Origin: Paenarthrobacter sp. GOM3
GTDB taxonomy: Bacteria; Actinomycetota; Actinomycetes; Actinomycetales; Micrococcaceae
Assembly: GCF_018215265.2 (NCBI RefSeq)
Contig: NZ_CP136562.1
Coordinates: 496,001 to 560,000, forward strand
Reading direction: 5' to 3'
Length of the DNA: 64,000 bases
Shown: positions 25,351 through 40,227 of the stretch, piece by piece
How positions within the stretch are numbered: position 1 is the first letter of the stretch
Layout of the letters: each line of letters begins with the position of its first letter
Translations under genes and position numbers: made by a program
The notes under the pieces: model-generated
Told to the model about the DNA's origin: nothing
The model's database searches: none
What the model saw: the letters and a program-made list of their open reading frames with translations, nothing else

Positions 25351-26690
25351 GCGTGGTCCTCATCCAGGTCGCTGAGCCGCAGACCCTTGGTTTCCTTGGC
25401 GAACATCACCGAGACCATGGAGATCAGGCCCATGGCGGCGAGGTAGATTCCGATCGCGTAACCGGTGCCGAAAGCGCTGTACAGGGCCAGGGCGATGATG
25501 GGGGACAACGAGCCGGCGATCAGCGAGGCAAGGTTGTAGGACACGGAGGTGCCGCTGTAGCGCACATCCGTGGGGAAGAGCTCGGAGAAGAAGGCTCCGA
25601 TGACCGAGCTGTACGCGGCGAAGATCAGCAGACCACCCACTGCAGCGGCGATGATGCCCCACAGTTGCCCGGTGTTGAGCAGGAAGAAGAAGGCGAAAGC
25701 CCAGACCACGGTGGCAATGGAGGCGCCGATCAGGATTGGTTTGCGGCCTACTTTGTCCGCGTAAAGGGCCAGGATGGGAATGGCGACCACTGCCACGGCC
25801 TGGCCGATCATCACGGCGGTGAGCCCTGTCTGCCTCTGCAGCCCCATGATCTGGGTGACGTACGTGATGATGAACAGGGAGTAGATGTAGAAGCCTGCGT
25901 TCTCGCCCATGCGGCTGCCCGTGGCGATGAGGATTTCCCGCCAGTTGCGGCGGAAAAGGATGGCCAGCGGCATCCTGCGTTCCGGGCTGCCTTCGGCTTC
26001 GCGCTTCCGCTGGGCTTCCTTGAACAGCGGAGTCTCCTGGACGTAGAGCCGCAGGACGAGGCCAATGATCACCAACAATGCAGACAATCCGAAGGCGATG
26101 CGCCAGCCCCAGGCCAGGAATTCGCTCTCCGGCATGGTGGCGGCCAGTATCGCCAGGACACCGGCTGCCATGAGGTTGCCGAGGGGCGGTCCCATGTTCG
26201 GCCAGGAGGCCCAGAAGGCGCGACGCGCACTTTCGTTGCTGTGTTCGGAGACGAGGAGGACCGCGCCGCCCCATTCGCCACCGAGGGCAAATCCTTGAAT
26301 CAGGCGGAGGAGCAGGAGGAGCAGTGGAGCGGCCACGCCGATCGCAGCGTAGGAGGGAATGAAGGCGATGAGGGTGGTGGCTACGCCCATGAGCATGAGG
26401 CTGGCCACCAGGGTGGCGCGGCGTCCGTACTTGTCGCCGAGGTGCCCCAGGACGATTGCTCCGATAGGCCGGGCCAGGAAGCCCGCCGCAAACGTTCCGA
26501 GGGCCAGCATGGTGCCCACCAATGGATCGTCCGTTGGGAAAAAGAGTTTGTTGAATACCAGTGCAGCGGCAGTTCCGTAGAGAAAGAAGTCGTACCACTC
26601 GACGGCGGTACCAGCCAGGCTCGAAGCAGCCACGACGGGCAGGCTGGAGTGCTTCTGCTGCCTCAGTTCTGCTTTCTTCAAATCGGTCAT
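25347..26690 (-). CDS. MFS transporter, metabolite:H+ symporter (MHS) type
   Basis: Twelve-helix permease of 447 residues. The MHS-family landmarks are present: GTAVEWYDFFLYGTAAALVF at helix 1, GAIVLGHLGDKYGRRATLV in loop 2-3, and GFALGGEWGGAVLLVSEH. Relatives import shikimate, protocatechuate, citrate or betaine-like acids. As the first gene of the six-gene operon it probably imports the carboxylate or amide substrate that the following enzymes degrade. It is divergent from the GntR regulator, with GTATAC sites between them. Confidence 0.9.
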   Translation of the reverse strand: MTDLKKAELRQQKHSSLPVVAASSLAGTAVEWYDFFLYGTAAALVFNKLFFPTDDPLVGTMLALGTFAAGFLARPIGAIVLGHLGDKYGRRATLVASLMLMGVATTLIAFIPSYAAIGVAAPLLLLLLRLIQGFALGGEWGGAVLLVSEHSNESARRAFWASWPNMGPPLGNLMAAGVLAILAATMPESEFLAWGWRIAFGLSALLVIIGLVLRLYVQETPLFKEAQRKREAEGSPERRMPLAILFRRNWREILIATGSRMGENAGFYIYSLFIITYVTQIMGLQRQTGLTAVMIGQAVAVVAIPILALYADKVGRKPILIGASIATVVWAFAFFFLLNTGQLWGIIAAAVGGLLIFAAYSSVIGAFFSELFPTDVRYSGTSVSYNLASLIAGSLSPIIALALYSAFGTGYAIGIYLAAMGLISMVSVMFAKETKGLRLSDLDEDHA

Positions 26691-26821
26691 AGTGGGGATC
26701 CTTTTGCGGTTGGGACAGGTGGGCTCTGGGGAAATAAGCCCGGGGGGTCCCAGGAAATTGAGGGGTTCCGTACGTGAGCGGAGTCACTGGACACCGTCAC
26801 TGAACAACACTGTAGACGGGC

Positions 26822-26898
26822 TGTATACAAGCTGTCTATATTTAAGGAAGAAGTTTCTTGGAGGTATCAGGGACGGCCCTGAATGCAACTCGTATACT
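26822..26898. promoter_or_regulatory. Two GTATAC operator-like sites in the divergent promoter region
   Basis: TGTATACA at 26822-26829 is a perfect palindrome within TTGTATACAG (minus strand), which resembles the TnGTATACnA consensus of FCD-type GntR regulators. A second core GTATAC at 26892-26897 coincides with the likely -10 (TATACT, 26893-26898) of the gntR gene itself. The layout predicts control of both the catabolic operon and the regulator gene. Confidence 0.6.
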
Positions 26899-26921
26899 GG
26901 GCTTCGCGAGAAAGGCTCTGC

Positions 26922-27563
26922 ATGATCCAGATGACCCCAGCTGCACAATCGCAGCCGGAAGTGGCGTACCAGTGGATGAAAAGCTACATCGCGGCCCTTC
27001 CCCGCGACGAGGAAACATTCCTCAACGAGGGCGTCCTGGCCAAGACCACGGGCACCTCCCGTACCCCGGTACGGGAAGCCTTGCTCCGGCTCGAAGCCGA
27101 AGGATTCGTCAAGCGCATCCCGCACAAGGGCGCCTATGTCCCACCGATCTCGGACCCGGATGTCCGCGCCATATTGCAGGCCAGGTCCGTGGTGGAGAAG
27201 TGGGCTGTCCAGTCGCTCGAATCCATGGCCGAAACCCAAATCGACGCCTTCCAGGGCATCATCGACCAACAGCGCGAAGCGAAGAAGGATCCCTCGAGGT
27301 TCATCGAGTTGGATACCGAGTTCCACACGCTAATTGTCCGTGCAGGTGGCAACCCCGTCCTCGCCGACTTCTACGCCTCGCTACGGCAAAAACAACTGCG
27401 GATCGGCGTCAAGGCCGTCTCCCGGGGTACGGACCGCGCCGGCGATGTGCTCCGCGAGCATCAGCTCATAGTGGACGCCCTGCGCAGCCGGAGCCTCGAC
27501 GCAGCGCACCAGGCCATCGATTCCCACCTGGAATCCACGCGGCTGGCCGTCATCGGCTACTAG
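26922..27563 (+). CDS. GntR-family regulator, FCD type
   Basis: DNA-binding regulator of 213 residues. The winged helix contains NEGVLAKTTGTSRTPVREALLRLEAEGFVKRIPHKGAYVPP, and the C-terminal all-helical FCD domain carries the metal/ligand histidines (ELDTEFHTLIVRAG and a late DVLREHQLIVDAL). ATG 26922 is preferred because GAGAAAGG ends 6 nt before it; an earlier ATG at 26883 lies upstream of the probable -10. It is divergent from the MFS-led catabolic operon. The expected role is a repressor released by a carboxylic-acid ligand. Confidence 0.88.
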   Translation: MIQMTPAAQSQPEVAYQWMKSYIAALPRDEETFLNEGVLAKTTGTSRTPVREALLRLEAEGFVKRIPHKGAYVPPISDPDVRAILQARSVVEKWAVQSLESMAETQIDAFQGIIDQQREAKKDPSRFIELDTEFHTLIVRAGGNPVLADFYASLRQKQLRIGVKAVSRGTDRAGDVLREHQLIVDALRSRSLDAAHQAIDSHLESTRLAVIGY

Positions 27564-27853
27564 TCCTCGCTGTGCAGCTCCCGCTGGCGGGCGCTCAGCA
27601 GCTCAAACTCGGGACGGGCAGCCACGAACCGTTCAACGGCGTCGAGCACTTGCTGGAGATGCGCGTGGTCCGGGGCCACCAGGGCGGCGCCAATCAGCGC
27701 GCGGCGGTGCTGGTCCTGGAACCCGGTCTCTGCAGCTGAAACCTCGAAACGCCGTTTCAATTCCCCCACCAGGGGTCGCACCAGCGAGCGCTTCTCCTTC
27801 AGGCTATGGATATCGCCCAAGAGGACGTCGAATTCGATCCAACCGATCCACAT
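27560..27853 (-). CDS. DUF503 (YlxP-like) protein
   Basis: Protein of 97 residues. MWIGWIEFDVLLGDIHSLKEKRSLVRPLVGELKRRFEVSAAET is the standard DUF503 N-terminus, and ALVAPDHAHLQQVLDAVERFV the second half. The family is small, cytoplasmic and of unknown function; it is often found near nusA-infB, which is not the case here. Its last bases overlap the end of the converging gntR gene by four bases. Confidence 0.82.
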   Translation of the reverse strand: MWIGWIEFDVLLGDIHSLKEKRSLVRPLVGELKRRFEVSAAETGFQDQHRRALIGAALVAPDHAHLQQVLDAVERFVAARPEFELLSARQRELHSED

Positions 27854-27895
27854 GGTTCATTATCACCGCAGGTCAGTGGGATGGAACTGCAGGGA

Positions 27896-27972
27896 TTTGA
27901 TGGAATCTTGAGGAAATGCAGTAACGCACCTTGAGTTGGGCTTGGCAGTGTCTATGAGGTTGGCCCAAAAGG
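27896..27972 (+). promoter_or_regulatory. Leader element upstream of the polysaccharide operon (copy A)
   Basis: The block AATCTTGAGGAAATGC at 27904-27919 is identical to 33673-33688 upstream of the GGDEF operon. It contains CTTGAG (27907-27912), preceded by a degenerate copy TTTGAT exactly 11 bp earlier. Downstream a hairpin can form between TTGGGC (27936-27941) and GCCCAA (27963-27968), extended by CCTT/AAGG. Its 3' side, CCAAAAGGCTGA, resembles TCAAAGGCCGA in the other copy. It may be a regulator site, a structured RNA, or both. Confidence 0.5.
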
Positions 27973-28012
27973 CTGACGGACTCATTCGCTGCTAGTTACC
28001 AGGACTGACATC

Positions 28013-30004
28013 GTGCCCTTATACCCTGCCCGAATCCGAACCAGACCCCATACCCGTTTCCGTGCCGCGACTGCGACGCTTGCCTGTGTTGCCTCTTTGG
28101 CCTTGTCCGTCGCCGCAATTCCAGCGGCCGTCGCTGCGCCCTCCCAAGGATCCACCCTGCAGGCATCGTCCAGCGTTTCGGCCCTCGCCGGGCAGGCGGA
28201 GCAAGTGCTGGTGGTGCCGGTGACGGCGGGCCTGGAACCCGCTCGGATCAAGGGAACAATCGTGGTGTCCGGGAAGCCGGAGGGCACGGTCCGGGCAACG
28301 GTCAACGGGCGGGTCGTGCTCGAAGCCGGCGCTGCTGCCAGCATCCCCCTCGACGCGGCCGTCAGCAGCGCCGACGTGCTGGACCAACAACTGACAGTGG
28401 GCCTGCAGTTCGTCCCTGCAACCCAGACCATGTGTGTCCTCTCCAACGCCACGGCAACCCTGAACAACATGGTGGTCGACTTCAGCGGGACCGCCAAAGC
28501 ACCCACGACGATAGGGGAGTTCTTCCCGGCGTCCGTTCCCGCCGTCGTGCTTCCCGTCCCCGCCGATCCGGGTGCCGATGTGTCCGCGGCCATCATGACT
28601 GCCTCGGCCGCCATGTCGCACCGCTACCCGGACGCCGCAGTCGCGGTGGTTCCCGAAAGTGAACTTGTGGCGCGCGTGGCAAACCTGCCGGCGGGCAGCC
28701 GGATCCTCAGTGTCGTGGCCGACCCGGGCGAGGTGGGCACCAAGCTTGCCACCGCCGCCGGACTGCCGCAGCTCATCCTTACCGGCCACGACGAAGAACT
28801 CCGCGCCGCTGCCCGGGCCCTGGCCAGCGACAAGACAGCGCTCGCGGTAACGCCTTCGGTGACCGGCCTGACCTCTGCGCTGCCCGCCGCGCAGGGCCTG
28901 ACCCAGAGCATCAAGGACCTCGGCAGCACCACGCTCAAGCTCTCGGGATATGGCACGCCGGAATCGTATATTGGCGTTTCGCAATCACAGTTCGGCGGCC
29001 CTGTCTCCTCGGTGAAGGTCCAGCTCAAAGGAACACACACGGCCGTGCCGGATAACGCCCAGGCGCAGCTTTCCGTCTTCTGGAACGATTACCTGCTGAG
29101 TTCCAGGAACCTCGACGGCGGCGACACCTTCACGGTGGACGCTGAGGTTCCAGCCGGGCAGCTTCAGGCGAAGAACGGCCTGCGTATCCGGTTGGCCGCC
29201 CTCCCCGCCGGCGGTGACTGCTCCGGACCGGCGGGCGTCATGCCCATGGAAGTCACACTGGATACGGCGGGCAGCACCGTGACCGCTGTTCGCGGCGACT
29301 CTACCGAGGCCGGCTTCGCGCGCTTCCCGCAGGTTTTGGGCCAGAGCGTCCCTGTGGCGTTCGGCGACATGAACGCCCAGGCAAACACCGTCAACGCCGC
29401 CACCTTGGTCGCTGCGCTCCAGCGGGACAGCGCCACGCTCCTGGACACCCGGGTTGTGGGTATCGATTCGCTGGCCGATTCGAGCGACTCCGGCCTGGTG
29501 GTGGGTGCTACAACAGAGGTGGCCAACAAGCTCTCGGCACCCCTGCGCTTGGCGGAGTTCCGCACTATCTCACCGGACGACGTCGAATATGGCGTGGGCG
29601 TATCGGCGCCGTATGGCGTGCTGGAAGCCTTTGAACAGGGCGGCCGGAACCTGCTCCTGCTGGGTGCGTGGGCCCCGGAAGGTGACGTCGCGGCAGCCGC
29701 CACGCTCCAAGGCTCGCTGGCCGCTCATGTGGGCGGGGTTGAAGGCGGTTGGGGTTCCTTGTCCCGCAACCTCCTGGTGACGCAACCGTCCGGTACCCCG
29801 GTGCTGTTGGAGAGCAACGTGGTTGTTCCGCAGAAGGCCGTCACCGATGACTACCGTCCATACGCCTGGTGGATTGGCGGGGCCGTGCTGGTCCTCGGCC
29901 TCGCGTTTGCGCTGCGCACCGTGCTTATGCGGCGCCGCGCCAAGGAAGCGCAAGCCTATGTGGACGCTGAGCTGAAATCTTCCGAACCGGGTCATGGCAA
30001 CTAG
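28013..30004 (+). CDS. BcsB-like exported polysaccharide synthase accessory protein
   Basis: Exported protein of 663 residues. A signal peptide ends near AAVAAPS (about residue 43), a long beta-rich extracytoplasmic region follows, and one C-terminal membrane helix (about 618-640) ends in RRRAKEAQ. The layout and scattered similarity (VGLQFVPATQTMCVLSNATATL, then LRIRLAALPAGGDC) fit the cellulose-synthase regulatory subunit BcsB, which guides a nascent glycan outside the membrane and contacts the synthase. GTG 28013 has no strong Shine-Dalgarno. It overlaps the next gene by 11 bases. Remote similarity is judged by eye only, so 'BcsB-like' is tentative. Confidence 0.6.
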   Translation: MPLYPARIRTRPHTRFRAATATLACVASLALSVAAIPAAVAAPSQGSTLQASSSVSALAGQAEQVLVVPVTAGLEPARIKGTIVVSGKPEGTVRATVNGRVVLEAGAAASIPLDAAVSSADVLDQQLTVGLQFVPATQTMCVLSNATATLNNMVVDFSGTAKAPTTIGEFFPASVPAVVLPVPADPGADVSAAIMTASAAMSHRYPDAAVAVVPESELVARVANLPAGSRILSVVADPGEVGTKLATAAGLPQLILTGHDEELRAAARALASDKTALAVTPSVTGLTSALPAAQGLTQSIKDLGSTTLKLSGYGTPESYIGVSQSQFGGPVSSVKVQLKGTHTAVPDNAQAQLSVFWNDYLLSSRNLDGGDTFTVDAEVPAGQLQAKNGLRIRLAALPAGGDCSGPAGVMPMEVTLDTAGSTVTAVRGDSTEAGFARFPQVLGQSVPVAFGDMNAQANTVNAATLVAALQRDSATLLDTRVVGIDSLADSSDSGLVVGATTEVANKLSAPLRLAEFRTISPDDVEYGVGVSAPYGVLEAFEQGGRNLLLLGAWAPEGDVAAAATLQGSLAAHVGGVEGGWGSLSRNLLVTQPSGTPVLLESNVVVPQKAVTDDYRPYAWWIGGAVLVLGLAFALRTVLMRRRAKEAQAYVDAELKSSEPGHGN

Positions 30005-31682
30005 CCTCGCCACGCGCCGTGCCGGCCACCGCAAGGCGGCAGTACCTGCGGCCTTGGGGTTGCTGGCCCGGGCATGGGAACGGCTCGGCGCCCCGGTTGC
30101 TGGCCGCAAGGTTCCGGGCACCAGGATCGTTGCCGTCCTGTCCGCCGTGGTTGGCTACCTCGCTTGCCTGTACACGATCGGGCACGGCACCAACCTGGAC
30201 TACTCCGACGCCCAGAGCCACCTGACCATCGCGCGCCGGATCTTCGACAGCAAGGCCCCGGGCTTCGAACAGCTGGGAACCGTCTGGTTGCCCATGCCGC
30301 ACCTGCTGCTGGCGCCGTTCGTGCTGAACATGTGGTTGTTCAGCACCGGCTGGGCGGCCGGGCTCCTGGGAATCCTGGCGTTGTCCGCCACCACCACCGG
30401 CCTGTACCTGATCGCAGCCCGCCTGGGGTTGGGCCGGGCCGGTCGACTCGCCACCACACTGGCTGTCCTGGCCAACCCCGCGGTCCTCTACGTCTACACC
30501 ACCGCGCTCACCGAGCCCGTGCTGATCATGTGCATCGTCGGCGGCATGGCTGGCCTGGCGCACTGGGCAACCAGCCGGCGTCGCATGAGCGCCGGCGAAC
30601 TGGCTGTCTTCGCCGGCATCCCGTCAGCCGCCGCCGTGCTGTCGAGGTACGAAGGCTGGGCGCTGGTGATGACCGGGACCCTGTTCGTGCTCATCGTCGC
30701 CAAGCGCCGCACGGGCTCCTGGCGCGAAGCACTCACTATGGCCGGCGGGTACGTGATGATTCCGGCAGCCGCCGTGCTGTGGTGGATCTCCTACAACTGG
30801 GCCATCTACGGCAACCCGCTGGAGTTCATGTTCGGGCAATACTCCGCCTACGCGCAGCAGAAAAACATCACCGACGGCGGACTGTTGCCCACCAAGGGCA
30901 ACCTGGGGCTCACGCTGACTACTTTCCATTGGTCGCTGCTGGAGACAGCCGGCGTCCTCGTCCTCGCTCTGGCGGCATGCGGCGCCGTCGTGCTTGTCTT
31001 CAGGAGGGGCTTCGCGAACAGCACCCTGCTGGTGGCGGTGACCGGCAGTGCTTATGCATTTGCGCTGCTGAGCCTGTTCCTGGGCCAGACCGCCATCAAC
31101 AACGACCATTCACTGCCGTCCACATGGTGGAACAACCGCTTCGCACTGACCGCCCTGCCGCTGGTAGCGATCCTCGTTGCCGTGTTCGTCCAGGAAATCA
31201 CGCTGACCCGGCGGTTCAGGCCGTGGCTCATCGGCGCTTTGCTGGCAGGGCTCGTTGCGCAAAACATGTGGTGGCATGAGGATCCCACCGGGCGCCTTGC
31301 CGTCCTGGCAGAAGGCCGGATGTCCGCAGAATCCACCACCCATTCAACCGCTGCTGCCCGCTGGCTCAACGAGCATTACGAGTCAGGCGGGATCCTCATG
31401 GATGAAAGCGCCCGCGGCAATGCGGTCCTCCCTGTCATGGGCATCCCGCTTAAGGAAATCTACAACCGCGCATCCGGCGACTACTTTGGCCCGGCCCTGG
31501 AAGATCCCGCGAAGTACGCCAAGTGGGTCTTCGTCAACGTCGAGGCAGGCTCGGGCGCCCGCGACTCCGGCCCCACCGACCTGGTGTACCAGGCGATGGT
31601 GAAGGACCCCGGTTTCAACGTCCGCTACTCGATCGCTTTCTCCACGCCAACACACCGGATCTATGAAAGGTCCTCAGACTGA
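29994..31682 (+). CDS. PMT/ArnT-like integral membrane glycosyltransferase
   Basis: Polytopic protein of 562 residues with about 12 predicted helices. The first outer loop has the acidic pair of GT-C enzymes (THNLDYSDAQ-like: GTNLDYSDAQSHLTIARRIFDS), followed by QLGTVWLPMPHLLLAPF. The C-terminal 120 residues form a soluble outer domain. GT-C enzymes transfer sugars from polyprenyl-phosphate donors outside the membrane, here perhaps to decorate the polymer made by the adjacent synthase. It overlaps its neighbours on both sides (11 and 1 bases). Acceptor and donor are unknown. Confidence 0.75.
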   Translation: MATSLATRRAGHRKAAVPAALGLLARAWERLGAPVAGRKVPGTRIVAVLSAVVGYLACLYTIGHGTNLDYSDAQSHLTIARRIFDSKAPGFEQLGTVWLPMPHLLLAPFVLNMWLFSTGWAAGLLGILALSATTTGLYLIAARLGLGRAGRLATTLAVLANPAVLYVYTTALTEPVLIMCIVGGMAGLAHWATSRRRMSAGELAVFAGIPSAAAVLSRYEGWALVMTGTLFVLIVAKRRTGSWREALTMAGGYVMIPAAAVLWWISYNWAIYGNPLEFMFGQYSAYAQQKNITDGGLLPTKGNLGLTLTTFHWSLLETAGVLVLALAACGAVVLVFRRGFANSTLLVAVTGSAYAFALLSLFLGQTAINNDHSLPSTWWNNRFALTALPLVAILVAVFVQEITLTRRFRPWLIGALLAGLVAQNMWWHEDPTGRLAVLAEGRMSAESTTHSTAAARWLNEHYESGGILMDESARGNAVLPVMGIPLKEIYNRASGDYFGPALEDPAKYAKWVFVNVEAGSGARDSGPTDLVYQAMVKDPGFNVRYSIAFSTPTHRIYERSSD

Positions 31683-33640
31683 TGACACCTCCTTCCCACG
31701 TAGCGGACGCTCAGCTCAACCGGAAGTCGATCGGCCAGACCCTGCTCGAGGCCGGGCTGGTCACCCCCGGGCAGCTCCAGCGGGCACTGGACCGTGCCGC
31801 AAGTGAAGGCGGACTGCTGGGCCGGCACCTGATCCTGGAGGCGGGGCTGGACCGTCGTCGGATTTATGAAGTGCTGGCCGAGCAGTGGCAGGCTCCCTTG
31901 GTTGACCTGGTGGCTGAACCTGCCGACGACGCACTCATGGAGATGCTCGGTTACAGCGAGCTCGGTGAGCCGTTCTGGCTGCCGTGGCGGATGGAAGGCG
32001 ACGTCCTCACCGTCGCCACTGCTGTAGCACCCACGGCCGCCATTGCGCATGAAGCGGCCCTGACGTTCGGGGCCAGCGACGTCGAGTTCCGCACCACCAC
32101 CGACTGGGACATCAACCAATCCATCCAGCGGTCCTTCCGTCGGCACCTGCTCTACGAATCGGCCGAACGCCTTGCCGAAGAACGCCCGGGGGAGTCTGCC
32201 CGCACGGCCCTCACGCGCTGGCAGCGCTACCTGCCGTTGGTCCTCGTGGCAGGCATCGTGGCCGCGTTTGTGGTGTCGCCCCTGACCGCCGTCATCGTGC
32301 TGCTTGCGGCGGCCAACATCGTGTTCCTGGTCAGCATCGGCTTCAAGTCCCTCGCCAGCCTCCGCCGACCGTTCGACAGCTTGCACGAGGCCGCAGTCGC
32401 CAAGGCCAGGAACAGGGAACGGGCCAGTCGCGGCCTCCCTCCCCTCGCGGAAGAACGGGTGCCTGACGCGGAGCTCCCCGTCTACACCATCCTGGTTCCG
32501 GTGTTCCGCGAGGCCAACATCATCGACAAACTACTGACCAACCTTGGGCAGCTGGACTACCCGCGCTCCAAGCTTGACGTCCTTGTGCTCCTGGAGGAGG
32601 ACGACGCCGAGACCATCGCCGCCGCAAAAGCTTCCAGGCCGCCGGAGTACGTGCGAATCCTCATCGTTCCCAAGGGCGACCCGCAAACCAAGCCCCGCGC
32701 GTGCAACTACGGGTTGACCTTCGCCCGCGGCGAGTACGTGGTGATCTACGACGCCGAAGACCGCCCGGACCCCGGCCAGTTGCGGGCATCCATCGCTGCG
32801 TTCAAGCAGGACGAGTTCGAGCGGCAACACCTCAACCCGAACCGCAAACCACTCATCTGCGTCCAGGCAGCCCTGAACTATTTCAACGCAGACCAAAACG
32901 TCCTCACCCGCATGTTCACCATCGAATACACCCACTGGTTCGACTCCATGCTTCCCGGCCTGGACAACTCCGGGATTCCCCTGCCGTTGGGCGGCACCTC
33001 CAACCACTTCGTCACGTCCTTGCTCAAGGAAGTCGGCGCGTGGGACCCATGGAACGTCACGGAAGACGCGGACCTGGGCCTCCGGGCCGCAGTGGAGGGA
33101 TACCGGGTAGGCGTCATCGACTCCACCACCTGGGAGGAGGCCTGCTCGCAAGTCCCCGCATGGATCAAGCAACGCACCCGGTGGATCAAGGGCTACATGG
33201 TGACCTCCGCCGTCAATACCCGGAACTCGCTGCGCTACCTCCGGAGCACCGGCATCGCGGGCACCATCGGCTTCCTCGGCCTGATCCTGGGAACACCGTT
33301 GGCGTTCCTCGCCTACCCGTTGGTGGTCGGGTTCACGGTGGTCACGTACATCGGCTACGACATTGTCGGATTGGTCCTGCCTCAATGGCTGCTGGTGGGA
33401 GGTGTGGTGTCCATGCTGTTCGGCAACGCCATGATGATCGTCGTCTCCGGTGTTGCCACACTGCGGCGCCATGGCTGGCGGATCGCCATCTTCGCGTTGC
33501 TCAACCCCTTCTACTGGGTGCTGCACTCGGTGGCGGCCTGGCGGGCCGCGTGGCAGATGCTGACGAGTCCCCACAAATGGGAGAAGACACCACATGGGTT
33601 GGAAGCCGAATACCACGACGACGGCCACTGGGCCGGGTGA
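31682..33640 (+). CDS. Processive GT2 glycosyltransferase with N-terminal MshEN-like domain
   Basis: Membrane polysaccharide synthase of 652 residues. Residues 16-68 hold two tandem copies of the MshEN-type pattern (SIGQTLLEAGLVTPGQLQRAL and LLGRHLILEAGLDRRRIYEVL), a module that binds cyclic di-GMP in MshE-like proteins. The first Arg of each canonical RLG motif is replaced here (Ser16, Leu45). Two helices (about 183-221) precede the catalytic domain, which has EEDDAE (305-310), YDAED (356-360), TEDAD (460-464) and QRTRW (497-501), the processive cellulose/hyaluronan-synthase signature. Several C-terminal helices follow. In NfrB the MshEN module follows the GT2 domain; here the order is reversed. 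It is the third gene of the operon. Confidence 0.85.
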   Translation: MTPPSHVADAQLNRKSIGQTLLEAGLVTPGQLQRALDRAASEGGLLGRHLILEAGLDRRRIYEVLAEQWQAPLVDLVAEPADDALMEMLGYSELGEPFWLPWRMEGDVLTVATAVAPTAAIAHEAALTFGASDVEFRTTTDWDINQSIQRSFRRHLLYESAERLAEERPGESARTALTRWQRYLPLVLVAGIVAAFVVSPLTAVIVLLAAANIVFLVSIGFKSLASLRRPFDSLHEAAVAKARNRERASRGLPPLAEERVPDAELPVYTILVPVFREANIIDKLLTNLGQLDYPRSKLDVLVLLEEDDAETIAAAKASRPPEYVRILIVPKGDPQTKPRACNYGLTFARGEYVVIYDAEDRPDPGQLRASIAAFKQDEFERQHLNPNRKPLICVQAALNYFNADQNVLTRMFTIEYTHWFDSMLPGLDNSGIPLPLGGTSNHFVTSLLKEVGAWDPWNVTEDADLGLRAAVEGYRVGVIDSTTWEEACSQVPAWIKQRTRWIKGYMVTSAVNTRNSLRYLRSTGIAGTIGFLGLILGTPLAFLAYPLVVGFTVVTYIGYDIVGLVLPQWLLVGGVVSMLFGNAMMIVVSGVATLRRHGWRIAIFALLNPFYWVLHSVAAWRAAWQMLTSPHKWEKTPHGLEAEYHDDGHWAG

Positions 33641-33664
33641 GATATCCTCCTCGAAGTAAGGGAT

Positions 33665-33735
33665 CTTGAGTCAATCTTGAGGAAATGCCGCAGTGGGGTT
33701 GAGCGAGCAGCACCACACTGGGCTCAAAGGCCGAA
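33665..33735 (+). promoter_or_regulatory. Leader element upstream of the GGDEF operon (copy B)
   Basis: CTTGAG occurs twice with an 11-bp period (33665-33670, 33676-33681), inside a 16-bp block (33673-33688) identical to 27904-27919. TTGAGC (33699-33704) can pair with GCTCAA (33722-33727). The 3' block TCAAAGGCCGA matches CCAAAAGGCTGA of copy A. It starts 97 bp before the diguanylate cyclase ATG. Confidence 0.5.
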
Positions 33736-33761
33736 GCATAACCAGCTGAGGGGGTTGGGCC

Positions 33762-34940
33762 ATGGTTCTCGATGCATTCTCTGTACGGGTTGCTTTGGGC
33801 GTGGTCACGGTGACGCTCTTCGTTCTTTTCTGCGCTTCCTTCCAACGCACCCGCTCACCCTACGCAGGCTGGTGGAGCCTTGCACTGCTGGAATTCATGG
33901 TGGGCAACGCTGCGTTCCTCCTCAACGGCACCACCCATCAGCAATGGGCCAACCCGGTGGGCAACGTCCTGGTGGTGGCCGGCGCATTCAGCGTCTGGGC
34001 CGGCGCAAGGTCGTTGCGGGACCTCAAAACAACGCCTTGGCAGTTGGCGGTGGGCCCCGGCATCACGGCTGTTGCTTCCGTTCTGGAGGGCCCCGGAACC
34101 AACGTGTGGTCCGGGGGCTTCGTTTACCTGGCCATGATGACGGTTGGCATTGCGCTGGCGGCCAAGGATCTCTGGTTCATCAAGGCCTCCCATTCCCAAG
34201 TGCACAAGGCACTCTCCCTGGCGTCGGGCCTTCTGGCCCTCTACTACCTGGGCCGTTGGGTCGTCTACGCCACGGAAGGTCCCACCAGCACTACTTTCCG
34301 CACATACTTTGGGCCTGCACCATCCGGGCTGGTGTCCATGGTCCTGCTGGTCACAGTGTCCTTCAGCATGACGGCCCTGACCAGCGACCAGCTCATCAAG
34401 GGGCTCAAGGAACGGGCCGCCCGGGACCACCTGACAGGCCTGCTGAACCGGGGAACCTTCCTGGACCTTGCCACTGGCGAACTCAACCGCCTGCGGGCCA
34501 CGGAGTCCGGCGTCGCGATTGTCCTGGCGGACCTGGACCATTTCAAAGCCGTCAACGACGAGTATGGACACGGCACCGGGGACGCCGCCCTCAAAGCCTT
34601 CGCCGCGGCCTGCACTGCCTCGGCCAGGTCCACCGACCTCATAGCCCGTTACGGTGGCGAGGAGTTCATCCTCTTCCTCCCGGGGGCCACGCAGGAACGG
34701 GCCGAGAGCATCGCCGGCGAAATCAGCCGCCGCATGGCTGCGACGGACGTGCCGGAAGGCGTCACGTTTCCCACGATCAGCTACGGCGTAACGTCCAGCC
34801 CCCGTGCTGCGGCGGATCTCGCCTTCATGATCGAAGTGGCGGATGCAGCCCTTTACAGCGCCAAAGCACAAGGAAGAAACCGGATTGTTGGAGCAGACCG
34901 CCTCGAGGCGGCCGCTATCGCGGACGAGGCACGATCATGA
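33762..34940 (+). CDS. Membrane-bound diguanylate cyclase (GGDEF)
   Basis: Protein of 392 residues that should make cyclic di-GMP from two GTP. The N-terminal half has about six to seven hydrophobic helices forming a membrane sensor of no recognised class. The catalytic domain contains DHLTGLLNR, the metal-binding LADLDHFKAVND, and the active GGEEF at 298-302. An inhibitory-site RxxD (RSTD, 289-292) lies five residues upstream, so product inhibition is expected. It begins the second unit of the polysaccharide region and overlaps the next gene by four bases (ATGA). Confidence 0.92.
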   Translation: MVLDAFSVRVALGVVTVTLFVLFCASFQRTRSPYAGWWSLALLEFMVGNAAFLLNGTTHQQWANPVGNVLVVAGAFSVWAGARSLRDLKTTPWQLAVGPGITAVASVLEGPGTNVWSGGFVYLAMMTVGIALAAKDLWFIKASHSQVHKALSLASGLLALYYLGRWVVYATEGPTSTTFRTYFGPAPSGLVSMVLLVTVSFSMTALTSDQLIKGLKERAARDHLTGLLNRGTFLDLATGELNRLRATESGVAIVLADLDHFKAVNDEYGHGTGDAALKAFAAACTASARSTDLIARYGGEEFILFLPGATQERAESIAGEISRRMAATDVPEGVTFPTISYGVTSSPRAAADLAFMIEVADAALYSAKAQGRNRIVGADRLEAAAIADEARS

Positions 34941-35434
34941 ATGAGCTCACCACCAGGATCCAGATCCAACACAACCACGAGTTGTCAGCTTTCAGGCAGG
35001 ACATCACCAGCGCACCGTACCAAGGCGGACCACTCCCGTCCCTGAACGCCAGCCGCCGCTCAGTAAGGATGAGTCCGGTTCAGTCGGTCGAGGACGGAAA
35101 TGCCAACCTGACCATAGTGGCCGACGTCGAAGGACTCGCCTGGTTCACCGCGGACAAGGGCATGCTGGGTAGCTGCATCACGGTGTCCATCGCCGGGCAC
35201 CGCCGGAATACGGGCACCCGCGTCCACCTGCCCCTGGCTGAATGTGACGCCTGGATCGAGGCCATCCTCGGCGGGTCCTGGATCACCCACGTTTACCGGG
35301 CCGGGAACAAGGTTGAACCGGATGGCCGGTTGGACATTGCCTCCTACCGGCTCTTCCTGGACGAGCGCAGGAACCCCGTTTCCAAACCCCAAGCCGTAGC
35401 CGACTCCACGTTGCGCCGCCTGGAAGAGTCGTGA
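34937..35434 (+). CDS. Unknown 165-residue protein between two cyclic-di-GMP enzymes
   Basis: Soluble protein without signal peptide or membrane helix, and no family that I recognise. Its centre is a probable beta-rich domain (DGNANLTIVADVEGLAWFTADKG...GSCITVSIAGHRRNTGTRVHLPLAECDAWIEAIL), followed by a Tyr/Arg-containing C-terminus. An RRSVR stretch near residue 50 recalls the RxxxR of PilZ domains, but the matching D/NxSxxG is absent. It overlaps the genes on both sides by four bases, so it is made in step with a cyclase and a GGDEF-EAL protein. A role in cyclic-di-GMP signalling is implied by location only. Confidence 0.7.
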   Translation: MNELTTRIQIQHNHELSAFRQDITSAPYQGGPLPSLNASRRSVRMSPVQSVEDGNANLTIVADVEGLAWFTADKGMLGSCITVSIAGHRRNTGTRVHLPLAECDAWIEAILGGSWITHVYRAGNKVEPDGRLDIASYRLFLDERRNPVSKPQAVADSTLRRLEES

Positions 35435-36849
35435 CCAGCACTGCGTCCGGCTCTCCAGCAGACCTCGACCCCAGGATCGGAAGGCTGGAACGGCACATCC
35501 AGGCCCTGATGGAGGAACTGCACCAGGCACGCTACGAACAGCACCGGGACACCCTGACCGATGCCCTGACAGGGCTGGGCAACCGCATGGCGCTGATCAA
35601 CGCCTACATCGACGCGCAGGACGCGATGGCCCATGGCGCCGCCCCGCCGGCGCTGCTCCTCCTGAACCTGGACGGCTTCAAAGCTCTCAAGAACTCCGCC
35701 GGCCATGCCGCCGCGGACCAGATCCTGGTGACGGTCGCCATGCGCATCCGGTCGGCCGTCCGGGATAACGACGTCGTCACCCGCCTGGGTGGCGACGAGT
35801 TCGCGGTGCTGTTGCCGGCCACCCCGCAAACCCGGGCCACCGCCGTCGGAAACCGTATCCTTGCCGCGCTGGAACCAAACATCGACCTGGGAAACAACTC
35901 GGTCCGATGCGGGGCGAGCATGGGCCTGAGGATCGCCGAACCGCACCACAGCGCCGAGGACCTCCTCCAGGAAGCCGACCTGGCCATGGAGGAATCGAAA
36001 AGCGAGGGCCGGAACAAGCTCAAAGTGTTCGACCCCGGAACGTTGCATGCCAGGCAGCTTCAACGCCAGATCGTGGGAGAACTCCGCGACGCCATCCGTT
36101 CGGACCAGCTGGTCCTGTATTACCAGCCCATCGTGGAGCTTGCCACGGGACGGATCGAGGGATCCGAGGCACTGGTCCGCTGGAACCACCCCGTGCACGG
36201 CCTCATCATGCCGGACCAGTTCATCCCGGTTGCCGAAGCCACGGGCCTCATTGCGGAGTTGGGCCGGTGGGTCCTCCGGACAGCGGTGCGGCAGTTGCGC
36301 GAGTGGAGGGTGAATCCCGCAACTGCGCAACATGACTTTTCCATGCGGATCAACGTCTCCGCCGCGGACCTGCAGAGCCTGGAATTCGTGGACGACGTCA
36401 GCGAGGCCCTCGCCGAGGAGTCCCTGGCGCCGGAATCCCTGGTGCTGGAGTTAACCGAAAGCGCCATCATCCACAACAACGAGCTGGACCGTTACACCCT
36501 GGCCAGTTTGCAGAGGCTGGGCGTGGGGCTGGAAATCGATGACTTCGGTGCGGGCTATTCGTCCATGGGCTACCTCCGGAAGCTCCCGGTGGACCGCGTG
36601 AAAGTGGACCGGCAATTCGTGAAGGATCTCGGCAAGGATTCCGCGCAGCTCGGCTTCCTCGCCGCCATCCAGCAGGTCATCCGCTCCTGCGGCCTCGATG
36701 GCATCTGGGAGGGAATCGAAACGGCGGAGCAGGCTGAAGCCCTTCGAAGCATTGGCTGCACCAGCGGCCAAGGCTACTACTTCGGCAGGCCGTTGCCAGA
36801 GGCGGAGTTCACCGCGCAGCTGGCCTCGCAGCAAACGTGGCCGGCTTAA
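35431..36849 (+). CDS. GGDEF-EAL dual-domain cyclic-di-GMP enzyme
   Basis: Cytoplasmic protein of 472 residues. A short coiled-coil-like N-terminus (about 15-40) leads into a GGDEF domain with an intact GGDEF motif (120-124) and an RxxD inhibitory site (RDND, 111-114). The EAL domain has EAL at 246-248, INVSAADL, LELTES, DDFGAG at 370-375, KVDRQFV (Lys391) and GIETAEQA, so the phosphodiesterase residues look complete. It could make or degrade cyclic di-GMP depending on state. The GTG start overlaps the previous stop by four bases. A strong bidirectional terminator follows. Confidence 0.93.
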   Translation: MTSTASGSPADLDPRIGRLERHIQALMEELHQARYEQHRDTLTDALTGLGNRMALINAYIDAQDAMAHGAAPPALLLLNLDGFKALKNSAGHAAADQILVTVAMRIRSAVRDNDVVTRLGGDEFAVLLPATPQTRATAVGNRILAALEPNIDLGNNSVRCGASMGLRIAEPHHSAEDLLQEADLAMEESKSEGRNKLKVFDPGTLHARQLQRQIVGELRDAIRSDQLVLYYQPIVELATGRIEGSEALVRWNHPVHGLIMPDQFIPVAEATGLIAELGRWVLRTAVRQLREWRVNPATAQHDFSMRINVSAADLQSLEFVDDVSEALAEESLAPESLVLELTESAIIHNNELDRYTLASLQRLGVGLEIDDFGAGYSSMGYLRKLPVDRVKVDRQFVKDLGKDSAQLGFLAAIQQVIRSCGLDGIWEGIETAEQAEALRSIGCTSGQGYYFGRPLPEAEFTAQLASQQTWPA

Positions 36850-36852
36850 ACG

Positions 36853-36888
36853 AAAAACGCGGGACCACGTCCGTGGTCCCGCGTTTTT
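36853..36888. terminator. Bidirectional intrinsic terminator
   Basis: Perfect 16-bp stem AAAAACGCGGGACCAC (36853-36868) with GTGGTCCCGCGTTTTT (36873-36888), 4-nt loop, and T-runs on either strand. It separates the GGDEF operon from the converging purL. Confidence 0.95.
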
Positions 36889-36897
36889 CTGTGACGC

Positions 36898-39207
36898 TTA
36901 GCCGAAGTACTTCGGCAGCGTACCTTCGTGCGCTTCGCTGAGGGCGTCCAGGGAGAGCTCGTCCACGCCGTTGATCTCCAGCTTTCCACCGGCAGCGTCA
37001 ACAACGCCGATCCGGATGTGGGCGAAGCCGCGGGCCGTGCACATGTCCTTGAAGCGAACTTCCTCCGAACGCGGCACCGAAACGATGGCACGGGCCTGGG
37101 ATTCGGAGAAGAGGGCCGTGAACAGGTCCACGCCGTCACGTTCCATGAGTTCCTCAAGGGCAATGCGGGCGCCAACGCCATAGCGCAGCGAGGACTCAAC
37201 CAAGGCAGCCGCGAGGCCACCCTCGGAGAGGTCGTGGGCGGCGTCAACCATGCCATCGCGGGAAGCGTTGATCAGGATCTGGCCCAATTCACGCTCGGCC
37301 GCAAGATCGACCTTCGGCGGCAAGCCACCGAGGTGTCCGCGCAGGTTGGACCATTCCGAACCGTCCAGCTCCGCTGCGGTGGTGCCCAGCAGGTAGATGG
37401 CCTGGCCGTCCTCGCGCCAGCCTGACGGCGTGCGGCGGGCGACGTCGTCGAGCTTGCCCAGGACTGCCACCACGGGGGAGGGGTGGATGGGCGTGGTGCC
37501 GGTCTGGTTGTACAGGGAGACGTTGCCGCCGGTGACCGGGATGCCGAGCTCCATGCAGGCATCGGAGAGGCCACGGATGGCTTCGGCCAGCTGCCACATG
37601 ACATCCGGGTCCTCGGGGGAACCGAAGTTCAGGCAGTCACTGACGGCCATCGGAACGGCGCCGGAGGTGGCGACGTTTCGGTAGGCCTCAGCCAGTGCCA
37701 GCTGCGCACCCTGGTACGGCTCGAGGTACGTGTAGCGGCCGTTGGCGTCGGTGGCCAGGGCAACGCCCAGGCCGGTCTCCTCGTCAACGCGGACCACGCC
37801 GGCGTCGTCAGGGAACGCCATGGCGGTGTTGCCGCCAACGTAGCGGTCGTACTGGTTGGTGATCCAGGACTTGCTGCACATGTTCGGCGATGCCACCAGC
37901 TCGGTGACCGCCGCAGCCAGCTCGGACGGAGCCGACGGACGGCCGGCGTCTTCGACGGAACCGGTGAACGCGTTGGCCTGGACCGAGTCCTGCCACTCCG
38001 GGCGGGCGAACGGACGGTCGTAGACCGGGCCGTCGTGCGCAACGGTGCGGGGATCGACGTCGACGATTACTTCGCCTTCCCAGGTGATGATGAGGCGACC
38101 AGTGTCGGTCACTTCACCCAGCCAGGAGTATTCCACGGCCCACTTGTCCATCACGGCTTCGAAAGCAGCGATGTTCTCAGGGGTGACCACGGCCATCATG
38201 CGTTCCTGCGACTCGGACATGAGGATCTCGCCCGGGGTCAGCGTGGGGTCGCGCAGCAGGACGGAGGTCAGTTCGACCTCCATGCCGCCGTCACCGTTGG
38301 AGGCGAGCTCGGACGTGGCGCAGGAAATACCTGCGGCGCCGAGGTCCTGGATACCTTCAACCAACGAGCCCTTGAAGAGCTCAAGGCAGCATTCGATCAG
38401 GACCTTCTCAGCGAACGGGTCGCCCACCTGGACGGCCGGACGCTTGGAGGGCTTGGTGTCGTCGAAGGACTCCGAAGCGAGCACCGAAGCGCCGCCAATG
38501 CCGTCGCCGCCGGTGCGGGCACCGAACAGGACAACCTTGTTGCCTTTGCCGGACGCGTTGGCCAGGCGGATATCCTCGTGGCGCATGACGCCTACGGCGA
38601 GGGCGTTTACCAGCGGGTTGCCCTGGTAGACGGAGTCGAAGACCATTTCGCCGCCGATGTTCGGCAGGCCCAGGCAGTTGCCGTAGCCACCGATGCCGGC
38701 AACAGCACCGTGCATGACGCGGGCGGTGTCCGGGTGGTCGATGGCGCCGAAACGCAGTGGATCCATCACGGCAACCGGGCGGGCGCCCATGGAGATGATG
38801 TCGCGGACAATGCCGCCGATGCCGGTAGCGGCACCCTGGTACGGCTCAACGAACGACGGCGAGTTGTGCGACTCGATCTTGAACGTTACGGCCCAGCCGT
38901 CCCCGAGGTTGGTGACGCCGGCGTTTTCGCCGATGCCCACCAGCATGTCCTTCTTCATTTCCTCGGTGACCTTCTCGCCGAACTGGCGGAGGTGGTTCTT
39001 GGAGGACTTGTAGGAGCAGTGCTCGCTCCACATGACGGAGTACATGGCCAGCTCGGCGCCGGTGGGGCGGCGGCCAAGGACCTTGACGATCTCGTCGAAT
39101 TCGTTCTGCTTCAAGCCCAGCTCGGCCCACGGGAGTTCCGTGTCCGGGGTCTTGGCAGCGTGCTCAACGGTGTCGATGTTGAACTTCTTGGTGGTTTCCG
39201 TGGTCAC
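36898..39207 (-). CDS. purL: Phosphoribosylformylglycinamidine synthase subunit PurL
   Basis: ATP-dependent amidotransferase synthase subunit of 769 residues, the small PurL type that works with PurQ and PurS. It converts formylglycinamide ribonucleotide to the amidine with ammonia from PurQ, the fourth step of purine synthesis. Landmarks include [54 protein letters not shown] and [10 protein letters not shown]. Its ATG overlaps the purQ stop by four bases. It is the last gene of the purS-purQ-purL operon. Confidence 0.97.
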
Positions 39208-39974
39208 TTGTCGCCTCCCACAATCTTGGTCAGTACGGAGGTGAAGAAACCGAGGCCGTCGGTGTCGCGGGGGGCGCCATCCAATGACTCGGGTCCGAAG
39301 CCGGTCTCCACAGCGTGCTCGGGGTGTGGCATGAGGCCCACCACGTTGCCTGCGGCGTTGGAGATGCCGGCGATGTCGCGGCGGGAGCCGTTCGGGTTGA
39401 AGCCCACGTAGCGGAACACCACGCGGCCTTCGGCCTCAAGGGCATCCAGAGTCTTCTCGTCGGCGATGTACTGGCCATCCTGGTTCTTCAACGGCACGAT
39501 GATTTCCTGGCCGTCTGTGTAGTCCACGGTCCAGGCGGTGTTGGCGTTTTCCACGCGCAGCGTCTGGTCGCGGCAGATGAACTTCAGGTGGTCGTTCTTG
39601 ATCATGGAACCGGGCAGCAGGTGCGACTCGGTCAGGATCTGGAAGCCGTTGCAAATACCCAGCACGGGGAGCTTTGCGTCGGAGTTGGCTGCATCAATGA
39701 TCTTGGTCATCAGCGGCGCGAAACGAGAGATGGCGCCTGCGCGGAGGTAGTCGCCATAGGAGAATCCGCCGGGGATGATGACAGCGTCAACGTCGCCCAG
39801 TTCGGAATCGGCGTGCCAGAGCGGAACCGCCGTGGCGCCGGCGAGCCGTACTGCACGGGCGGCGTCGCGGTCGTCAAGGGTGCCGGGGAAGGTGACGACG
39901 CCAACCTTGGCGCCTGCGAGCCTGGGCTCGGCGGCGACGGCTACAGCCTCGCCAATCAGGGGGATCGACGTCAT
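39204..39974 (-). CDS. purQ: Phosphoribosylformylglycinamidine synthase subunit PurQ
   Basis: Glutaminase subunit of 256 residues that supplies ammonia to PurL. The class I amidotransferase nucleophile lies in [11 protein letters not shown], and the His-Glu pair near the C-terminus in [28 protein letters not shown] is characteristic of PurQ. The frame opens at 40007, but ATG 39974 follows the purS stop by one base and has GAGG about 6 nt ahead, so it is preferred. The protein then keeps an N-terminal extension of about 20 residues before [14 protein letters not shown]. Confidence 0.96.
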
Positions 39975-39975
39975 A

Positions 39976-40227
39976 TCAGGCCTCAACGACCTCGACGTTG
40001 ACAACATCCTCGATCACCGGGTTGGACAGGAGCGTCTCGGCAGCTTCGCGGGCCTGGGCCAGGATAGCGTCGGTCACCTCGCCGTCGACGGTCAGTTCAA
40101 AGCGCTTGCCTTGGCGGACTGCGCTGAAGCTGTTGAAGCCGAGGCGGGGCAATGCACCCACGATGGCCTTCCCCTGGGGGTCCAGAATCTCGGGCTTGGG
40201 CATGACGTCAACGACGATCCGGGGCAT
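39976..40227 (-). CDS. purS: Phosphoribosylformylglycinamidine synthase subunit PurS
   Basis: Small subunit of 83 residues that bridges PurL and Pur[32 protein letters not shown] and the C-terminal [18 protein letters not shown] are standard. AGGAG lies 8 nt before ATG 40227. It is the first gene of the operon; its promoter must lie in the following (rightward) intergenic stretch. Confidence 0.96.

What the first reader, a model, noticed from the sequence alone, without database searches (positions are those of the whole stretch)
28013..36849. A cyclic-di-GMP-linked polysaccharide synthesis island of unusual composition
Two adjacent units on one strand encode a BcsB-like exported protein, a PMT/ArnT-like GT-C enzyme, a processive GT2 synthase with an MshEN-like module, a membrane diguanylate cyclase, an unknown protein and a GGDEF-EAL protein. 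All genes within each unit overlap. This resembles Bcs and NfrAB systems in logic, but it lacks BcsA-PilZ, BcsC/Z or NfrA and adds a GT-C enzyme. In a Gram-positive actinobacterium this suggests an undescribed c-di-GMP-regulated envelope glycan.
Basis: partly seen in the sequence, partly recalled or inferred. Interest (0 to 1): 0.78.

Follow-up and report, generated by a model that had tools for sequence, protein, structure and literature searches.

The report
Cyclic-di-GMP-linked surface sugar-polymer synthase cluster
A soil actinobacterium carries a conserved three-gene machine that probably makes and exports a surface sugar polymer, with signalling genes beside it that may turn it on and off; it resembles the cellulose machinery of other bacteria but is built differently, and its product is unknown.

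Summary

The conserved set is the trio, not six genes. BcsB and MshEN-GT2 co-occur in 6 of 149 family genomes, own included, about 1.7 kb apart each time. The cyclase unit is a Paenarthrobacter-type addition, kept in one relative that lost the trio.

The genome has one MshEN, no PilZ, five GGDEF (two here) and three EAL domains. But this MshEN lacks three contact residues, and erosion is general in the trio's lineage: direct c-di-GMP control is plausible, not shown.

New: both units share phased CTTGA repeats, also found beside an OmpR-type regulator and an Hpt-like protein without the usual histidine.

Best reading: a BcsB-assisted envelope glycan synthase under c-di-GMP-linked control, a new variant of the Bcs/Nfr kind.

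The parts
28013..30004 (+). BcsB-like exported protein, 663 aa, signal-like N-terminus and C-terminal membrane anchor
29994..31682 (+). GT-C glycosyltransferase, 562 aa, no Pfam family above cut-off
31682..33640 (+). GT2 synthase, 652 aa: N-terminal MshEN domain (about 16-154), membrane segments, catalytic domain about 262-506, C-terminal membrane segments
   Evidence: Pfam and NCBIfam; D308, D357-A-E-D360, TED and QxxRW conserved
31727..31885 (+). c-di-GMP-binding double motif of MshEN, residues 16-68, eroded at three contact positions
   Evidence: 18 of 22 relaxed and 7 of 12 strict positions
33762..34940 (+). Membrane diguanylate cyclase, 392 aa, GGEEF with RxxD site
   Evidence: Pfam GGDEF 133.3 bits; motif check
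34937..35434 (+). Unknown 165-aa protein; named relatives are all Paenarthrobacter or Arthrobacter sp.
   Evidence: No Pfam, NCBIfam or PDB match; 23 relatives found
35431..36849 (+). GGDEF-EAL protein, 472 aa, both motifs present
   Evidence: Pfam; GGDEF, EALVR, DDFGAG and other EAL motifs present
27897..27934 (+). TTGA direct-repeat element upstream of unit 1 (TTGA-N7-TTGA-N19-TTGA)
33665..33702 (+). CTTGA direct-repeat element upstream of unit 2 (CTTGA-N6-CTTGA-N18-TTGA)
36852..36889 (.). Perfect 18-bp hairpin between unit 2 and convergent purL, probable shared terminator
   Evidence: inverted repeat I16

Best explanation
Unit 1 is a synthase-dependent polysaccharide machine. The GT2 polymerises a nucleotide sugar on the cytoplasmic face and passes the chain through its own membrane channel. 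The BcsB-like protein, anchored outside the membrane, receives and guides the chain. The GT-C enzyme uses a polyprenyl-phosphate sugar to decorate or anchor that chain outside. The GT2's MshEN domain senses c-di-GMP, made by the neighbouring membrane cyclase and removed by the GGDEF-EAL protein (local signalling). A response regulator binding the CTTGA repeats co-expresses both units. Shown by computation: folds, catalytic motifs, trio linkage, shared repeats. Inferred: polymerisation, export, c-di-GMP binding, the GT-C acceptor, the regulator's identity. The sugar is unknown.
For: BcsB fold over the ectodomain. GT-C fold: the first 33 Foldseek rows are all GT-C enzymes or complexes holding one (class membership recalled). 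GT2 motifs: D308 and D357-A-E-D360 identical in 80 of 80 aligned rows, TED and QxxRW in 78 of 80 with 2 gaps; the own sequence is among the 80 twice. BcsB in 6 of 149 family genomes and MshEN-GT2 in the same 6 plus one matched only outside the MshEN part; own genome included; 1.7 to 1.8 kb apart on one strand in all 6. 21 of 76 related loci have the BcsB-like gene, all 21 with GT-C between it and GT2. One MshEN, no PilZ, five GGDEF (two here) and three EAL domains (one here) in the genome. HAMP-GGDEF-EAL or GGDEF genes adjoin the trio in other arrangements in Glutamicibacter L018 and Tersicoccus L022. In E. coli K-12 a GT2 with MshEN, NfrB, is locally c-di-GMP controlled by DgcJ (PMC8669469, passages read). 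NfrB lacks R and Q in its first motif and still binds c-di-GMP, Kd about 1 uM.
Against: MshEN has lost Arg in both motifs and Gln in motif I; three relatives (L004, L006, L016) have His for Gln in motif II too, and in L023, L025 and L026 no recognisable motif pair remains. No cyclase or EAL gene in the fetched flanks of six of six L010-L015 loci or of Glutamicibacter L019 (upstream flank only 0.5 kb in L014 and 2.1 kb in L019). G063 keeps unit 2 without the trio. HH comparison of the BcsB-like profile with E. coli BcsB alone is not significant (probability 1.2%), and phmmer finds no PDB match; the BcsB claim rests on Pfam and fold. Only PilZ and MshEN were searched as receptors; others, such as BldD, were not. 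No biochemical evidence of any product.
Confidence: 0.52

Rival explanations
1. The trio makes and exports a glycan, but c-di-GMP no longer binds the synthase in this lineage; control is transcriptional through the response regulator, and unit 2 is a co-regulated but separate signalling unit.
For: MshEN motifs score 17 or 18 of 22 in the window and 19 of 21 Micrococcaceae relatives (20 in Glutamicibacter), against 19 to 22 in 16 of 20 relatives from outside the family; the other 4, L030 and the trio-group members L023, L025 and L026, are eroded as well. Unit 2 kept after loss of the trio in G063. No cyclase near the trio in six of six L010-L015 loci. Shared repeats.
Against: The domain is kept and strongly conserved within the genus; NfrB, a proven binder, also lacks R and Q in motif I, though it keeps both in motif II; it is the only MshEN or PilZ domain found in the genome.
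Confidence: 0.32
2. A reduced cellulose synthase: the product is cellulose.
For: BcsB fold; NCBI names many of the 28013 relatives as cellulose biosynthesis protein BcsB; GT2 core aligns with E. coli BcsA at 97% HH probability.
Against: GT2 scores 32.1 bits against a CelA cut-off of 699.1 and scores higher, 41.9, with PgaC/IcaA, also far below its cut-off; no PilZ; no GT-C gene is annotated in the E. coli bcs region.
Confidence: 0.06
3. A protein or lipid glycosylation unit: GT2 makes lipid-linked sugar or oligosaccharide and GT-C transfers it, as in PMT/OST systems, with BcsB as the carrier or acceptor.
For: GT-C fold close to OST, PMT and ArnT; GT-C adjoins related GT2s without any detected BcsB in many loci.
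Against: QxxRW and flanking membrane segments are features of processive synthases, and BcsB is known to me only from polymer export (both recalled).
Confidence: 0.1

Closest known systems
NfrB/NfrA/YbcH (NGR polysaccharide, E. coli)
   Same: GT2 with processive motifs plus MshEN, overlapping genes, a dedicated diguanylate cyclase (paper passages; genes)
   Different: MshEN is C-terminal in NfrB, N-terminal here; NfrB pairs with an outer-membrane protein, here with BcsB and GT-C; the GT2 cores are only distantly alike (22% over the second BLASTP stretch)
Bcs cellulose synthase (BcsA/BcsB)
   Same: BcsB partner with the same fold; GT2 core related to BcsA
   Different: No PilZ, BcsC or BcsZ in the island; GT-C added; MshEN instead of PilZ
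Gram-positive synthase systems: PNAG (Ica), Pel of Bacillus cereus, Listeria Pss
   Same: Synthase-dependent export; Pel and the Listeria polysaccharide are c-di-GMP controlled (PMC7112194 passages; PMC4125290, abstract start in listings)
   Different: None has MshEN-GT2 with GT-C as far as I recall; not tested by sequence beyond the PgaC/IcaA score
BgsA mixed-linkage beta-glucan synthase (Sinorhizobium)
   Same: c-di-GMP-activated GT2 without PilZ (PMC5567048, title and abstract start in listing)
   Different: A different c-di-GMP domain; no BcsB, by recall

Membership tests
BcsB | BcsB fold with C-terminal membrane helix | tested here: met
BcsB | Interaction with the synthase | not testable with these tools
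   only genetic linkage: 21 of 21 loci
Cellulose synthase BcsA/CelA | Score above the CelA equivalog cut-off | tested here: not met
   32.1 bits against 699.1
Cellulose synthase BcsA/CelA | C-terminal PilZ domain | tested here: not met
   no PilZ in the protein or the genome
NfrB | Score above the NfrB equivalog cut-off | tested here: not met
   23.8 bits against 1170
NfrB | MshEN domain C-terminal to the GT2 | tested here: not met
   MshEN at 16-154, GT2 at 262-506
MshEN c-di-GMP receptor | Domain membership | tested here: met
   Pfam 35.1 over 23.1; NCBIfam 40.5 over 38
MshEN c-di-GMP receptor | Two 24-residue motifs with R1, L2, G3, L17, L21, Q24 | tested here: inconclusive
   7 of 12 strict; S and A at motif I positions 1 and 24, L at motif II position 1
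MshEN c-di-GMP receptor | Measured c-di-GMP binding | not testable with these tools
   needs purified protein
GT-C superfamily | GT-C membrane fold | tested here: met
GT-C superfamily | Catalytic acidic residue in first external loop | tested here: inconclusive
   D72 nearly invariant in 24 sequences and just after the first long helix; catalysis not tested
Processive GT2 | TED and QxxRW motifs | tested here: met
   78 of 80 aligned rows for both, 2 gaps

The most novel reading that the evidence does not exclude
BcsB + GT-C + MshEN-GT2 is an undescribed, cross-phylum class of synthase-dependent envelope glycan, ancestrally gated by c-di-GMP at the enzyme. In Micrococcaceae, as the MshEN site erodes, control has passed in part to transcription: an OmpR-type regulator and a histidine-less Hpt-like partner act through helically phased CTTGA repeats. 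In Pseudarthrobacter the Hpt-like gene is the fourth gene of the synthase operon, so synthase and regulator partner are made together.
Probability: 0.37. Interest if true: 0.72.

Novelty: new variant of a known kind. Interest (0 to 1): 0.58.

Why it matters
BcsB and c-di-GMP-gated synthases are known mainly from two-membrane bacteria and Firmicutes (recalled). A BcsB partner paired with a GT-C enzyme and an MshEN synthase in single-membrane actinobacteria asks what BcsB does when there is no outer membrane, and what surface polymer is made by soil Arthrobacter relatives. The genome has five GGDEF domains, three EAL, one MshEN and no PilZ, so a genetic test is unusually simple. The stepwise loss of MshEN contact residues along one lineage also offers a natural series for asking when a c-di-GMP receptor stops being one.

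Tried and rejected
Promoter scans were not run; the repeat element was found by reading and the repeat finder. Looking for a known domain in the 165-aa protein: no Pfam, NCBIfam or PDB match. Cellulose reading: judged unlikely on scores. BcsB near MshEN-GT2 in other lineages: not detected beside L024, L128 or L137-L138; absence by profile is not proof. E. coli BcsB by HH profile: not significant. My first motif scan used a fixed linker, mis-registered NfrB and left out L023, L025, L026 and L030; it is replaced, which takes all 42 sequences that the N-terminal profile hits, plus NfrB, with linkers of 4 to 6. In the GT2 tree 6 of 95 sequences, NfrB among them, failed the length filter, and the root is BcsA alone. 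Neighbourhoods of L129 and L139 were not printed; one search shows a GT-C next to GT2 in L139 and none in L129. Literature searches listed no paper on this set by title or abstract start; only open-access papers were searched, and at most 20 of each list were seen.
Full report
What is there. Six genes run on the + strand from 28013 to 36849 in two units. Neighbours within a unit overlap by 1 to 11 nt. The genome is a single 4.46-Mb contig. The closest relatives of the GT2 found, 85 to 96% identical, are records titled Paenarthrobacter or Arthrobacter sp., here called Paenarthrobacter-type. Downstream, purL and purQ run convergently (names are my reading of the translations), with a perfect 18-bp hairpin between.

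Conservation. A scan of named genomes gave 76 loci from 126 confirmed relatives, the best 80 being kept. 21 of 76 carry the BcsB-like gene, and in all 21 GT-C lies between it and GT2: 11 Paenarthrobacter-type loci, L010-L015 (Pseudarthrobacter and Arthrobacter), Glutamicibacter (L018, L019), Tersicoccus (L022) and an actinomycete MAG (L026). All six genes are present in 11 of the 12 Paenarthrobacter-type loci; the twelfth, L006, is a 4-kb contig. In 149 family genomes, the own one included, BcsB is found in 6 and the GT2 in 7: the same 6, with 1.7 to 1.8 kb between the two on one strand, plus G040, matched only from profile position 142 on. Within the same genus 3 of 8 have it, own included. 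In 396 genomes of the phylum the GT2 profile hits 22 at E up to 1e-80. GT-C lies next to GT2 in L137, L138, L139 and L140; L140 also has a BcsB match (2e-32, though no Pfam BcsB) and its GT2 lacks the MshEN part. A Chloroflexi MAG (L027) has GT2 with six MshEN stretches, two GT-C genes and then a contig-edge gene that passes Pfam BcsB. Many other relatives have GT-C beside GT2 with no detected BcsB or MshEN. In a tree of 89 of 95 GT2 cores, those with an N-terminal profile hit fall in one group, support 0.954, which also holds L032 and L146 without one.

c-di-GMP. The genome has five GGDEF domains, two of them here, three EAL domains, one here, no PilZ and one MshEN, this one. Other receptor types were not searched. 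The cyclase has GGEEF and an RxxD site; the GGDEF-EAL protein has both motifs and the usual EAL residues (motif roles recalled). Wang et al. (PMC5013675, passages read) define two 24-residue motifs. Here motif I has S and A where they have R and Q, and motif II has L for R; 18 of 22 relaxed positions hold. One search scores 42 sequences and NfrB. The 13 Paenarthrobacter-type enzymes (own included) score 17 or 18, L010-L015 and Tersicoccus 17, Glutamicibacter 20. Of 20 from outside the family, 16 score 19 to 22; L030 scores 18, and in L023, L025 and L026, which group with the Micrococcaceae trio enzymes in the tree, no recognisable pair of motifs was found. So erosion marks the trio's own branch, while L027, with the same partners, has intact motifs. 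NfrB, which binds c-di-GMP with a Kd near 1 uM (PMC8669469, passages read), has P and R for R and Q in motif I but an intact motif II. Partial loss is therefore not fatal by itself, but the window has lost one residue more.

Local linkage of signalling genes. In Glutamicibacter L018 a HAMP-GGDEF-EAL gene is divergent from the BcsB gene; in Tersicoccus L022 a HAMP-GGDEF-EAL and a GGDEF gene lie downstream. In L010-L015 and L019 none was found in the fetched flanks. In G063, a same-genus genome, the stretch compared (window 26001-40000) matches up to 27912 and again from 33388: a C-terminal scrap of GT2 remains, followed by the cyclase unit, full length at 83 to 88% protein identity. So the trio was probably lost as a block and unit 2 stayed.

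A shared operator and a candidate regulator. Both units have TTGA-N7-TTGA upstream: in the window and all 11 relatives compared for unit 1, and in the window and all 12 compared for unit 2. The three-repeat form CTTGA-N6-CTTGA-N17/18-TTGA occurs exactly 5 times in the genome, 0 in the reversed control; one is the unit 2 site. The unit 1 site departs from it at its first base and by one base in the second spacing. Spacing of about one and three helical turns suits an OmpR-family regulator (inference). Seven same-genus genomes: 4 of 7 have sites, 9 in all, 0 in controls. Of these 14 sites, 3 lie beside an OmpR-type regulator gene and an Hpt-like gene: one in the own genome, and one each in G009 and G106, which lack the trio, with regulators 50% and 44% identical to it; in G009 the site lies between the two divergent genes, in G106 upstream of the regulator. 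Three of the 14 precede cyclase units (own, G137, G063). In L010-L015 an Hpt-like gene follows GT2 directly in six of six loci, and TTGA-N7-TTGA precedes the BcsB gene in six of six; a regulator relative was found in the flanks of one of the six, L011. No such repeat was found in L018, L019, L022 or L026. Five Hpt-like proteins tested pass Pfam Hpt, 5 of 5. In 8 aligned, the position where the usual motif has the phosphorylated His is Leu in 7 and Ile in 1 (motif recalled). Other sites in the own genome precede an ATPase like that of histidine kinases and a CD-NTase-like gene, or lie near a DUF1206-like gene (names from my reading). That the regulator binds the repeats is an inference.

Verdict. 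The trio is a real, conserved module with the parts of a BcsB-assisted polymer synthase plus a GT-C enzyme. The genes around it tie it to c-di-GMP, but this lineage's receptor domain is partly degraded. It is neither a Bcs nor an Nfr system by the tests run; it works like both.

Noticed in passing
window 27897-27934 and 33665-33702; G000 C1:1102292, 3627894, 3750346, 4200082: CTTGA direct repeats at 11 and 33/34 nt spacing form a small set of about six sites in the genome; one beside an OmpR-type regulator and Hpt-like gene.
   Followed up: partly
L010-L015 just downstream of GT2; L090 1041-1418: Hpt-domain proteins with Leu or Ile at the phospho-His position; fourth gene after the trio in six of six Pseudarthrobacter/Arthrobacter loci.
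   Followed up: partly
L159 9481-9661 (G063): The trio is missing, leaving a GT2 C-terminal remnant, while the cyclase unit is full length.
   Followed up: yes
L027 47-4015: Chloroflexi GT2 of 1322 aa with six MshEN stretches, followed by two GT-C genes and a BcsB N-terminus at the contig edge.
   Followed up: partly
L057 6617-8941: Exosortase (EpsH) gene between GT-C and a related GT2 without the MshEN match in an actinobacterial MAG.
   Followed up: no
L137 3286-6144, L138 5757-8324: Large proteins with a weak (L137) or clear (L138) PBP-like domain near MshEN-GT2 and GT-C genes.
   Followed up: no
L092 (G000 C1:3750346): A CTTGA site upstream of what looks like a CD-NTase gene, possibly CBASS defence (by eye).
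   Followed up: no
window 26923-27563: GntR/FadR-like regulator gene upstream on the same strand (read by eye); no relation to the cluster shown.
   Followed up: no
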